Part shown: positions 7,816 to 10,720 of the stretch, in pieces
Numbering within the stretch: position 1 is the first letter of the stretch
How the letters are laid out: each line of letters opens with the position of its first letter
Source of the DNA: Okeania sp. SIO3I5
Lineage (GTDB): Bacteria; Cyanobacteriota; Cyanobacteriia; Cyanobacteriales; Microcoleaceae
NCBI RefSeq assembly: GCF_010672085.1
Contig: NZ_JAAHHT010000011.1
Location: 26,936 to 71,563 of the forward strand
DNA: 44,628 nucleotides
Direction of reading: 5' to 3'
Notes under the pieces: generated by a model
The model's database searches: none
What the model was told of the DNA's origin: nothing
What the model saw: the letters and a program-made list of their open reading frames with translations, nothing else
Program-made: the position numbers and the translations under genes

Positions 7816-8223
7816 ACTAATGAGTTATGCCAAATCTCAATAAGTTGACTACATATCGTGAAAAAAGGTTTTATATCAAGTCTGATTAATTAGCCATAAT
7901 AAAAATCTTCTTTTCTTACGCGCCAGAATATTTTTCGCTCCTTCCCCTTATTCCCTACTACCTACTTTGTACAGACGTTGCATGAACGTCCCTACCTAAA
8001 TTTTTTATAGTGGTTATTCACGCAAGACATAATATTAGGCGGCATAAGGTTTTGGAAAAATACCCTTGGTATAAACAAGTAATTGTCACTACTTAGGGAC
8101 TAGCAAAAAAATAGACTACCATTTAATTGTATAGAGTAGAGATTGCTACTCTGCGATAAGGCTTTCCTTAAGGAATGCTATCGCAAACGCCTACGGCTGA
8201 CTTGATTCTTAGAAAAAATCTAC
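7816..8223. repeat. Intergenic region with GGGACG and GCGATA hairpins
   Basis: No gene is visible. A small inverted repeat (CAGACGTTGCATGAACGTCCC) lies near 7971-7991. The hairpin 8153-8184 (GCGATA pairing with TATCGC around TTCCTTAAGGAA) ends 39 bp past the iscB stop. It could terminate iscB or mark the far end of the iscB element. Confidence 0.6.
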
Positions 8224-9498
8224 TCAAAACGAGTAATTGTATCCATCTCGTCTGTGAACGGGTTGGATATGGTTTCGAGAAACAGACAAAATTTCATCTT
8301 GATGTCGGATATCAAAATTGCCTTTACTTCTTACAGTTTTAATCCTGACTCCTTTTAGTCCAATATTTTGGCCTTTTACGACATTGATAATATCTCCAGT
8401 TTTCCAACCAGGGACAGGTTTTGTAGCCTTATAACCTTTGCGGGGAAAACCATATTTATCCATTTGTACCATCTGCCTGCAACCGTGTCCCATTGCTGTA
8501 ACAATCAATGGTTGAGCCGTAAGAATTGTTAATTTTTCTACTTCCCCAACGCACGCTGCATCTATCCAATGTTCTTTTGGTAAATCCAATCGACGACGAT
8601 TGTACTTGGTTTGCGCACCACTCCCGGTAACAACGGGTAGTTCTGTCTTTTTTAAAGTTTCAAAGATTTTCCAACGAGTTGCATTAACTGCTGCTGCATC
8701 TTTTAATGGCGTTTTGGCTTGTTTCAAAACTCGTTCCAAAAGAGATGGTTTATCCTTCAAAAATTCTCTAATATCCATAGCACCCTTATCTTTGTTGCAT
8801 TGATGACAAGCAATAACTAGATTCGACACCCTATTGCTTCCACCTTTTGAACGGGGAGTTGTATGCTCAATTTCTAAGCGAGTATCTTTTGCGCCGCAAT
8901 AAACACATTTGCGATTAAACTTTAAGAGCAAATATTCGCGAAGATCGTATCCCGATAAAGTTCCTTGCTGGTATTCAATTCCAGAGATTTCGGGATTTTC
9001 AACTTTTTGGGTATCGAACTTTACTAATTCCATTGCTAGGGAATTAATGGGTGCTAAGAAGCATAATTTGTTAACCCAAGCTTCTACAGTTAAAACTCTG
9101 TGCATTAAACTTGGTGGCAGCCATCCTTTTTTACGCTTTCTGTTAAGAAAACGCGGTTGTCGATAGCGGGTTTTTCGACGGCGGCGACCTCGCCGAAGAT
9201 TTCGCCGCCTAAGCATAGCGTTTTTTATTTGTTGACCTCGATGGATTAAGACCATCGCCCAAATAACTTCCCCTTCTTGAGTTACTAAAGCAAAACCTGT
9301 TTGCTTAGACCCAGGGTCAATTTTTAGCTGTAAATCCTGATGTTTTTCTGCTACCAATTTATTGAGAATTATGCTGAATGGATAGCGCCTAAAAACCTTG
9401 GCTTTACCTGCTTTTAATAATGACCTTGCCATTCCTGCCTTGCATGGTGCTAAAGGCTTTTTATTTGCATCAAGTACAAATACATAATTGGTGGACAT
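8224..9498 (-). CDS. iscB: IscB RNA-guided nuclease (PLMP, split RuvC, HNH)
   Basis: A 424-residue protein with the full IscB plan. The N-terminal PLMP domain has LDANKKPLAPCKAGMARSLL and GKAKVFRRYPF. RuvC-I follows with Asp61 in KIDPGSKQTG, then an arginine-rich bridge helix (about 96-124). RuvC-II has Glu157 in LAMELVKFD. The HNH domain has CxxC pairs at 198/201 and 231/234 and catalytic His212 in EIEHTTPRSKGG. RuvC-III has His310 and Asp313 in HWIDAACVG, and a C-terminal target-recognition region follows. All catalytic residues are present. IscB proteins are Cas9 ancestors that cut DNA using an omega RNA encoded just upstream, and such an RNA is visible here. The start at 9498 is preferred over 9567 because CCTCCT (AGGAGG on the coding strand) lies nine bases before it and the PLMP domain begins there. 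No TnpA transposase is adjacent. Confidence 0.93.
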   Translation of the reverse strand: MSTNYVFVLDANKKPLAPCKAGMARSLLKAGKAKVFRRYPFSIILNKLVAEKHQDLQLKIDPGSKQTGFALVTQEGEVIWAMVLIHRGQQIKNAMLRRRNLRRGRRRRKTRYRQPRFLNRKRKKGWLPPSLMHRVLTVEAWVNKLCFLAPINSLAMELVKFDTQKVENPEISGIEYQQGTLSGYDLREYLLLKFNRKCVYCGAKDTRLEIEHTTPRSKGGSNRVSNLVIACHQCNKDKGAMDIREFLKDKPSLLERVLKQAKTPLKDAAAVNATRWKIFETLKKTELPVVTGSGAQTKYNRRRLDLPKEHWIDAACVGEVEKLTILTAQPLIVTAMGHGCRQMVQMDKYGFPRKGYKATKPVPGWKTGDIINVVKGQNIGLKGVRIKTVRSKGNFDIRHQDEILSVSRNHIQPVHRRDGYNYSF

Positions 9499-9506
9499 TG
9501 TTGCGT

Positions 9507-9513
9507 CCCTCCT
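9507..9513 (-). promoter_or_regulatory. Strong ribosome binding site fixing the iscB start
   Basis: The coding strand reads AGGAGGG, with an 8-base spacer before the ATG at 9498. It favours this start over the in-frame ATG at 9567, which would lie inside the omega RNA. Confidence 0.8.
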
Positions 9514-9519
9514 ATAGAA

Positions 9520-9800
9520 ATGTAAAGTTGGCCTCGCCCGGTTATTTTGGCTTGTTAGGCTCGACACACTAGCTTTTCAAGTCTCTTTGCCTGTTTAATG
9601 CCGAGCAATAGAGGTCGGAACTGGCCGCGCATTCCGACGTATTGTGACCAAAATAACGTTTACCTTAAAAAAGTAGGCTGGACTAACCATTTAAACACAA
9701 ATAAGCGTTTTGATTAGATTTGTGGTTAGTCTTTATTATTGAGGTTGAGTCTAAGATTGCCGCCTTGCTTCGGACAGGTACGGGGATTTTTCCCCATGAA
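9520..9800 (-). ncRNA. Omega RNA (HEARO RNA) of iscB
   Basis: The 280 bases upstream of iscB fold into the multi-stem layout expected of the HEARO/omega RNA. GTTATTTTGG (9541-9550) pairs perfectly with CCAAAATAAC (9648-9657). Inside that closing stem lie GCTCG/CGAGC (9559-9563 with 9602-9606) and GTCGGAA/TTCCGAC (9614-9620 with 9632-9638). A further 9-bp stem joins GACTAACCA (9681-9689) and TGGTTAGTC (9723-9731). The 5' part has the motif AAGGCGG and a GGGG-AAAAAT-CCCC hairpin (9782-9795). In known IscB systems the guide precedes the scaffold, so the bases just above 9796 are the likely guide. The exact ends are inferred. Confidence 0.78.
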
Positions 9801-9902
9801 TAATTGGTACTTTATTAACGTGCAAATCTCTTACAATACAAAAACACTATCAAATTTCAGTACACTTATTTGAGTTACTAATTGCCTGATTGATTTATCA
9901 AA

Positions 9903-9929
9903 CAGGATTGGGTCTAAAACCCCGCCTTG
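9903..9929 (-). repeat. Second omega-RNA-like motif (possible remnant)
   Basis: On the minus strand this reads AAGGCGGGGTTTTAGACCC and continues AATCCTG. The omega RNA at 9741-9769 has AAGGCGG followed by CTTAGACTCAACCTC at the same spacing, about two thirds identical. It may be the stub of another HEARO RNA next to the complete one. Nothing else is seen in the gap 9800-10015. Confidence 0.4.
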
Positions 9930-10015
9930 ATTATTGGCGAAATATTTTTGGAGCGTTGCTCTAATCCCTGTTACAAAAACAACTTCTGACCTCTGAATTC
10001 TGACTTCTGACTTCG

Positions 10016-10720
10016 TTAATGTTCTGGAGGAACCTCCTCATCATCTTTTTCTTGAGTAGGTGTAGATTGATCTTGAGGTGGCGGTGGGGTAATCACCCGA
10101 TAATCAGCATCATAGACAGATTCAGTTTGACCAACCCCTGAACCACTAGGTTCGCGATAACCATAAGAATAAACCGAACCAGACCAAGACTCTGTTTTTG
10201 GTTCTTTTTCCACTTCATAACTTTTCTCTGTAGAATCTTGACTAACAGACTCTTGTGACTCTTCAATATCTTGTTCTCTTGTACTACCGTCCCAAGAAGG
10301 ACTAACTTTAGGAGGTCCTTGTTTCCAGTCATCAAAGTTTTCATCTTCCTCCCTTGGTTCCGAATCTTTATTTAGGTTAAAAGAGCTTTGGGAATTTGAT
10401 ATTCCTTGAGACTGTGAAGCTCTATCCCTACCTTGCCCAGCTTGATTTTGATGCTGAGATTGTCTAGGGCGAGGTCTGGAAGGTTGTAAATTTTGTTTAA
10501 ACAGGTAATTTGAAAGTTCAAAAATACCATAGATCGACAAGTAAGTAATTACACCTGCAACAAGAGCAGCTAAAATCCATATAGAAACAGGTAGAGGTAT
10601 AGACTTTAACCCTAGAAAAGTTAAGTCCAAACTGGGGGACCAATTTTGCCAAGTAAATAAGGCAAGCCCACCGAGGACTACAATTAAAACTATTAATAGT
10701 AAATTCCGACTTCTATTCAT
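10016..10720 (-). CDS. LapA-domain (DUF1049) membrane protein with acidic tail
   Basis: A 234-residue protein with two membrane helices (about 6-24 and 43-66) that match the LapA/DUF1049 hairpin, including QNWSPSLDLTFLGLKSIPLP between them. A long hydrophilic tail (80-234) is rich in Ser, Gln, Glu and Pro and is probably disordered. LapA domains are linked to envelope or lipopolysaccharide assembly in proteobacteria, and the cyanobacterial role is unknown. Its ATG overlaps the ubiX stop by 8 bp (10713-10720), so the two are translationally coupled. Confidence 0.8.
   Translation of the reverse strand: MNRSRNLLLIVLIVVLGGLALFTWQNWSPSLDLTFLGLKSIPLPVSIWILAALVAGVITYLSIYGIFELSNYLFKQNLQPSRPRPRQSQHQNQAGQGRDRASQSQGISNSQSSFNLNKDSEPREEDENFDDWKQGPPKVSPSWDGSTREQDIEESQESVSQDSTEKSYEVEKEPKTESWSGSVYSYGYREPSGSGVGQTESVYDADYRVITPPPPQDQSTPTQEKDDEEVPPEH

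What the first reader, a model, noticed from the sequence alone, without database searches (positions are those of the whole stretch)
8224..9800. Complete IscB locus with all nuclease residues and its omega RNA, without a transposase
All IscB landmarks are visible: the PLMP domain, RuvC Asp61/Glu157/His310/Asp313, HNH His212 and a strong ribosome site. A structured RNA region fills the space just upstream. There is no TnpA next to it, so this is either an IscB mobilised in trans or one kept for another role. Naturally intact IscB with readable RNA is of high interest as a Cas9 ancestor.
Basis: partly seen in the sequence, partly recalled or inferred. Interest (0 to 1): 0.85.

Follow-up and report, generated by a model that had tools for sequence, protein, structure and literature searches.

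The report
Intact IscB element with its guide RNA
A marine cyanobacterium carries an intact, mobile copy of IscB, the RNA-guided DNA cutter from which Cas9 is thought to descend; it belongs to a known kind of element, but its genome also holds a family of shortened copies that kept the guide RNA and lost the protein.

Summary
Confirmed. The RNA upstream, 9522-9731, matches Rfam HEARO end to end (103.2 bits, cut-off 83). Copies in its own and related genomes fix the element as about 1.5 kb, left end 9731, right end 8211 or 8207. The omega RNA starts at the left-end base, so the guide is the left flank. AAGAG stands at the right junction in 20 of 26 copies, probably the TAM/insertion target; the window copy has AAGAA. 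Orthologous sites of four other copies are empty in some relatives, so the family moves; dN/dS is 0.07-0.22. No Y1 transposase shares a contig with the five intact IscBs, as is usual for HEARO/IscB (PMC9755519, passages). An ordinary IscB element, presumably moved in trans.

Less ordinary: 13 of 26 two-ended copies are 348-368 or 556-565 bp, lack the ORF, keep the RNA and both ends, and share a hairpin with compensatory changes that the 13 longer copies lack. Standalone omega RNAs working with IscB are already reported (PMC9581776, passage).

The parts
8224..9498 (-). iscB coding sequence, 424 aa, ATG start, TGA stop; PLMP-type N-terminus (reads PLAP), split RuvC (D61, E157, H310, D313), HNH (H212), C-terminal region that by family knowledge contacts the TAM
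   Evidence: purifying selection
9508..9513 (-). ribosome binding site AGGAGG, 9 nt before the ATG
   Evidence: read directly from the sequence
9522..9731 (-). omega RNA scaffold (HEARO, RF02033), whose 5' end is the left end of the element
   Evidence: 103.2 bits, model 1-211; fold z -2.73; 11 of 37 pairs with two-sided changes over 20 copies, 0/500 shuffles
9681..9731 (-). left-end terminal hairpin GACTAACCA...TGGTTAGTC, also the first stem of the omega RNA
9732..9747 (-). predicted natural guide CAACCTCAATAATAAA: flanking DNA just 5' of the scaffold (the length of 16 nt is assumed from recalled IscB work)
   Evidence: boundary by copy comparison; no other exact match in the genome; 24 sites within 2 mismatches, itself included, against 35 for the reversed pattern
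8206..8210 (-). predicted TAM/insertion target, AAGAA here; consensus AAGAG (20 of 26 complete; final AG in 25 of 26, the exception being this copy)
   Evidence: empty sites
8211..9731 (-). whole mobile element (1521 bp; 1525 bp if AAGA is counted as its right end)
   Evidence: sharp similarity limits against copies in the same and related genomes
8221..8235 (-). possible right-end hairpin TACTC-GTTTT-GAGTA, overlapping the iscB stop codon
   Evidence: read directly from the sequence; right ends aligned
8093..8206 (-). right half of a dispersed repeat into which the element inserted
   Evidence: uninterrupted copies in a relative (L088-L091)
9732..9835 (-). left half of the same dispersed repeat

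Best explanation
An intact IscB/HEARO element of a mobile family. Shown by comparison: sharp ends, insertion as a unit, the omega RNA starting at the left-end base, and a conserved motif at the right junction. Inferred from established IscB biochemistry (recalled): the transcript starting in the left flank is processed to a guide of about 16 nt plus scaffold. IscB with this RNA then cuts DNA that matches the left flank followed by the TAM, which is the empty donor site, re-formed on chromosome copies that lost or never had the element. Repair from a copy with the element restores it there, so the nuclease keeps the element in place and offsets loss on excision. Excision and insertion themselves are presumably done in trans by a Y1 transposase; which one is not shown.
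For: Protein family and residues. HEARO match end to end. Copies sharing both ends in the own genome and relatives. Empty orthologous sites for 4 of 4 further copies tried, with alignments across the junction: C268 in G002 and G003; C212, which carries an intact IscB, in G001, G004, G005 and G006; C115 in G001, G004 and G005, while G002 holds the insertion; C257 in G003, G004 and G005. The flanking genes of the window copy lie together without IscB in 5 of 6 relatives. AAGAG at the right junction in 20 of 26 copies, AG in 25 of 26. 25 different guides among 26 copies, the repeated one being an orthologous insertion. dN/dS 0.07-0.22 over the 21 pairs of 7 full-length close relatives. Compensatory changes in the RNA.
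Against: No expression data. The window copy has AAGAA, the only one of 26 without the final G, so its own re-formed empty site may be poorly recognised. At C257 the empty sites do not carry AGAG and the left flank aligns over only about 37 nt; at C212 and C268 empty and filled sites differ by 2 nt, at one or the other depending on where the right boundary is set. At the window locus the orthologous intergenic DNA has diverged too far to show the junction; it comes from paralogous copies of the host repeat at 65-72% identity. No transposase with these ends was found at the 35 of 74 Y1 loci compared, with up to 1.5 kb of flank. One related contig (L115, same as G003 C744) has a partial Y1 match about 3.4 kb from an IscB element's left end.
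Confidence: 0.87

Rival explanations
1. A domesticated IscB kept by the host for another role (regulation or defence) at a fixed site.
For: Intact reading frame under purifying selection; no transposase beside it.
Against: Present at this site in none of the 5 relatives with the syntenic flanks; multicopy with near-identical ends; close homologues have other flanks in Okeania and Hydrocoleum contigs; no second exact match of the guide in the genome.
Confidence: 0.05
2. A variant of the best explanation: the same kind of element, but this copy is stranded, no longer able to move or to protect its own site.
For: AAGAA at its right junction; another small repeat lies at that junction; no transposase with matching ends found; many decayed IscB pieces in the same genome.
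Against: Coding and RNA features intact; ends like those of copies that moved.
Confidence: 0.25
3. On the ORF-less copies: they are ordinary MITEs that keep the omega RNA region only because its first hairpin is the transposase recognition site; the RNA has no function.
For: Mean pairwise identity of the omega part (0.869) is little above that of the middle (0.842) and below that of the last 34 bases (0.912) in the 10 short copies; three copies of 556-565 bp carry a ~205-bp repeat inside the RNA.
Against: Internal stems far from the ends show compensatory changes over the joint set of long and short copies, though this was not tested on the short copies alone.
Confidence: 0.45

Closest known systems
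IscB / HEARO elements (ISC group of the IS200/IS605 superfamily), e.g. KraIscB, AwaIscB, OgeuIscB
   Same: RRXRR/RuvC/HNH protein, HEARO RNA upstream with its 5' end at the element end, guide in the left flank, conserved motif at the right junction, no target duplication seen
   Different: Predicted TAM AAGAG, not one of the IscB TAMs I recall (ATGA, ATAAA, NWRRNA; recalled, not looked up); a short ORF-less subfamily with a covarying hairpin
Standalone omega RNAs that function with IscB (PMC9581776, passage, which cites earlier work)
   Same: Omega RNA loci without an adjacent iscB in a genome with iscB elsewhere
   Different: Here they are short elements with both ends, in 6 of 13 an exact remnant of the iscB start, an extra hairpin, and empty orthologous sites for the copies tested; function not shown
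IsrB and Cas9 (type II-D)
   Same: Shared RuvC ancestry, and HNH with Cas9
   Different: IsrB lacks HNH (PMC9581776 passage); Cas9d is longer (747 aa in the abstract listed) and CRISPR-associated

Membership tests
IscB (RNA-guided endonuclease) | Match to the IscB family model above its cut-off | tested here: met
   NF040563 459.4 bits, cut-off 175
IscB (RNA-guided endonuclease) | Split RuvC with inserted HNH, catalytic residues intact | tested here: met
IscB (RNA-guided endonuclease) | PLMP domain at the N-terminus | tested here: met
   RRXRR model matched over its full length, residues 6-179; the motif itself reads PLAP
HEARO / omega RNA (RF02033) | Match above gathering score directly upstream of the ORF | tested here: met
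   103.2 bits, gathering 83; 23 nt between RNA end and ATG
IscB (RNA-guided endonuclease) | RNA-guided, TAM-dependent DNA cleavage | not testable with these tools
   needs biochemistry
ISC / IS200-IS605 type element | Precise insertion next to a short motif, hairpin ends, no target duplication | tested here: met
   2-nt uncertainty at the junctions, and one of four loci without the motif in its empty sites
ISC / IS200-IS605 type element | Y1 transposase (TnpA) encoded within or moving the element | tested here: inconclusive
   none on the contigs of the five intact IscBs; no matching ends at 35 of 74 Y1 loci of the genus; a trans-acting one cannot be excluded

The most novel reading that the evidence does not exclude
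The ORF-less copies form a distinct, spreading family of guide-RNA-only transposons. They hitch-hike on both the transposase and the IscB made elsewhere in the genome, so that each insertion adds a new guide protecting its own site, and their extra covarying hairpin has a role of its own (RNA stability or recognition by the transposase).
Probability: 0.3. Interest if true: 0.6.

Novelty: new member of a known kind. Interest (0 to 1): 0.4.

Why it matters
It adds a well-delimited IscB family with its natural guides, a testable TAM and empty sites in close relatives, which makes the homing model of IscB checkable in one genus. The ORF-less copies would be a natural case of guide RNAs spreading without their nuclease.

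Tried and rejected
Domestication: rejected for lack of site conservation. Guide with other targets in the genome: 24 sites within 2 mismatches (one of them itself) against 35 for the reversed pattern, so none above chance. A Y1 transposase with the same ends: the best match (L050, E 0.003 for the first 60 bases of the left end) lies at the start of a ClpC-like reading frame (recalled likeness), far from the Y1 gene there, and was rejected as chance. tblastn for TnpA in the IscB loci used only 2 of 6 intended queries, because my script read the other four on the wrong strand; it found one fragment, in L115. Stronger conservation of the omega RNA than of the rest in ORF-less copies: not seen clearly. 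Right boundary at 8207: revised to 8211, because AGAG is already present in at least one empty relative at 3 of 4 loci. Papers: searches for IscB with MITEs and for TnpB, MITE, guide RNA and IS605 together found nothing relevant; four papers I looked up as the founding ones on IscB, ISC, HEARO and TnpB are not held, so what I say of them is recalled. Promoter-like sites at chance level, 5 against a mean of 4.2; terminator-like 5 against 1.6 around the element, not followed up.

Full report
What is there. On the minus strand, 9498-8224, lies a 424-residue protein without stops. It matches NCBIfam guided_IscB at 459.4 bits (cut-off 175), Pfam RRXRR over residues 6-179 and HNH, and solved IscB and IsrB chains. 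A ribosome site AGGAGG stands nine bases before the ATG. The RNA at 9731-9522 matches HEARO from the first to the last model position, 103.2 bits against 83.

Limits of the element. The genome that holds the window (G000, 10.5 Mb, 562 contigs) has 17 HEARO matches at E <= 0.001, 5 of them over the gathering score, and 46 tblastn matches to the protein, of which 5 are full-length and uninterrupted: the window, C212 (83% identity), C533, C203 and C201. Many of the weak ones cover only the HNH part inside other long reading frames. DNA comparison gives sharp limits at 9731 and 8207. In the loci held at that point a script found 46 left ends, 26 of them with both ends (not a census, since the loci came from capped lists). 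In these 26 the base after position 8207 is G in 25; the exception is the window copy. Reading inward, AAGAG is complete in 20 of 26. Beyond it there is only bias: the next base is A once in 26, the one after is A or T in 25 of 26, in flanks of 31% G+C.

Empty sites. The neighbours (shikimate kinase and the 10016-10720 gene) lie within 0.1-1.3 kb of each other without IscB in 5 of the 6 other genomes of the genus; the sixth gave only repeat matches. The window copy sits in a dispersed repeat of which four uninterrupted copies from G002 were aligned at 65-72% identity; two of the four read AAGAG at the expected place. For four other copies I looked for orthologous sites and found empty ones each time. 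C268: G002 and G003 span the junction; other relatives aligned on one side in the output shown. C212, with an intact IscB: G001, G004, G005, G006. C115: G001, G004, G005, while G002 carries the insertion without the ~205-bp repeat. C257: G003, G004, G005 span it, with a short left match; G002 aligned on the right side only. At the right flank the empty sites read AGAG in G002 and G003 (C268), AGAG in three and AGAA in one (C212), AGAG in two and AGAA in one (C115); at C257 they read TAGAC or similar. So AAGAG is probably target and not element. Empty and filled versions differ by 2 nt at C268 or C212 depending on the boundary chosen. In the relatives the C212 site appears to lie within the first codons of a gene resembling peptidyl-tRNA hydrolase (my reading of the aligned sequence, no search made).

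Function under selection. Among 7 close full-length IscBs pairwise dN/dS is 0.07-0.22; dS exceeds 1 in many pairs, so the lower values are rough. The omega RNA of 20 of the 26 copies (six with insertions or deletions in the RNA left out) shows two-sided changes at 11 of 37 pairs, 40 cells, reached by 0 of 500 shuffles; the number of further pair types does not exceed shuffles (333 of 500). The tool warns that related sequences can exceed shuffles without structure; slid controls are far lower, though they favour a structure derived from the same alignment.

Transposase. G000 has 10 Y1_Tnp matches on 9 contigs, none on the contigs of the five intact IscBs. In the 7 genomes of the genus there are 74 matches; I compared the 35 loci held, up to 1.5 kb each side, with both ends, and found no credible match. 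Against this reading, one Okeania contig (L115, G003 C744) has a partial Y1 match about 3.4 kb from the left end of an IscB element. [quoted passage not shown] the window therefore looks typical.

Shortened copies. Of the 26, 10 are 348-368 bp and 3 are 556-565 bp, without the ORF; two more are internal deletions of 632 and 1187 bp; 11 are 1501-2674 bp. Nine of the 13 are in G000, two in G002 and two in G003. Six of the 13 keep exactly the bases around the iscB start (GGACGCAACAATGTCC), so they derive from an iscB-bearing element. All 13 carry a hairpin TTTTGAG...CTCAAAA (two with one changed base at its 3' side) between RNA and right end; the 13 longer copies do not. Three of its 12 pairs change on both sides, in 12 cells: 0 of 500 shuffles by cells and by covariation score, but 128 of 500 by number of pairs and 417 of 500 by pair types. 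The 556-565 group holds a ~205-bp repeat inside the RNA, found at more than 25 other listed places in G000. Identity of the omega part among the 10 shortest copies is 0.869 against 0.842 for the middle and 0.912 for the last 34 bases, so selection on the RNA in these copies is not shown. One passage in PMC9581776 reports standalone omega RNAs that function with IscB; one passage in PMC8400943 treats the HEARO RNAs of Limnospira as remnants.

Host. The nearest named contigs are Okeania and Hydrocoleum, and loci of G003 and G002 are identical in sequence to the Okeania sp. SIO2F4 and Hydrocoleum sp. CS-953 contigs there. The window is therefore from a marine filamentous cyanobacterium of that group (inference).

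Verdict. A real, intact and ordinary IscB element in a family that moves; the newer part is the guide-RNA-only subfamily, whose function is open.

Noticed in passing
L004, L006, L007, L011, L012, L017, L081, L086, L087, L178: ORF-less 348-368 bp copies with omega RNA, both ends and a covarying hairpin TTTTGAG...CTCAAAA.
   Followed up: partly
L013, L014, L015: A ~205-bp repeat, abundant in G000, sits at the same place inside the omega RNA of three copies at different loci; at the C115 locus the G002 ortholog lacks it.
   Followed up: partly
L059 (same as L111), L036, L066: A ~57-bp hairpin repeat is inserted in the omega RNA of three copies, one of them (L059/L111) with an uninterrupted IscB.
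   Followed up: no
L005 around 1500 and 3033 (G000 C212): The second intact IscB copy appears inserted within the first codons of a peptidyl-tRNA hydrolase-like gene, judging from the empty sites of relatives; an ATG lies downstream (my reading).
   Followed up: no
window 9895-10019: A ~125-bp dispersed repeat found at dozens of listed places in the genus, also beside the L007 copy.
   Followed up: no
L115 218-334 (G003 C744): Partial Y1 transposase match about 3.4 kb from the left end of an IscB element.
   Followed up: no
OR578707 and MK605246 (phage records): Full-length IscB relatives (53% and 52% identity) in a Microcoleus phage and a Nodularia phage.
   Followed up: no
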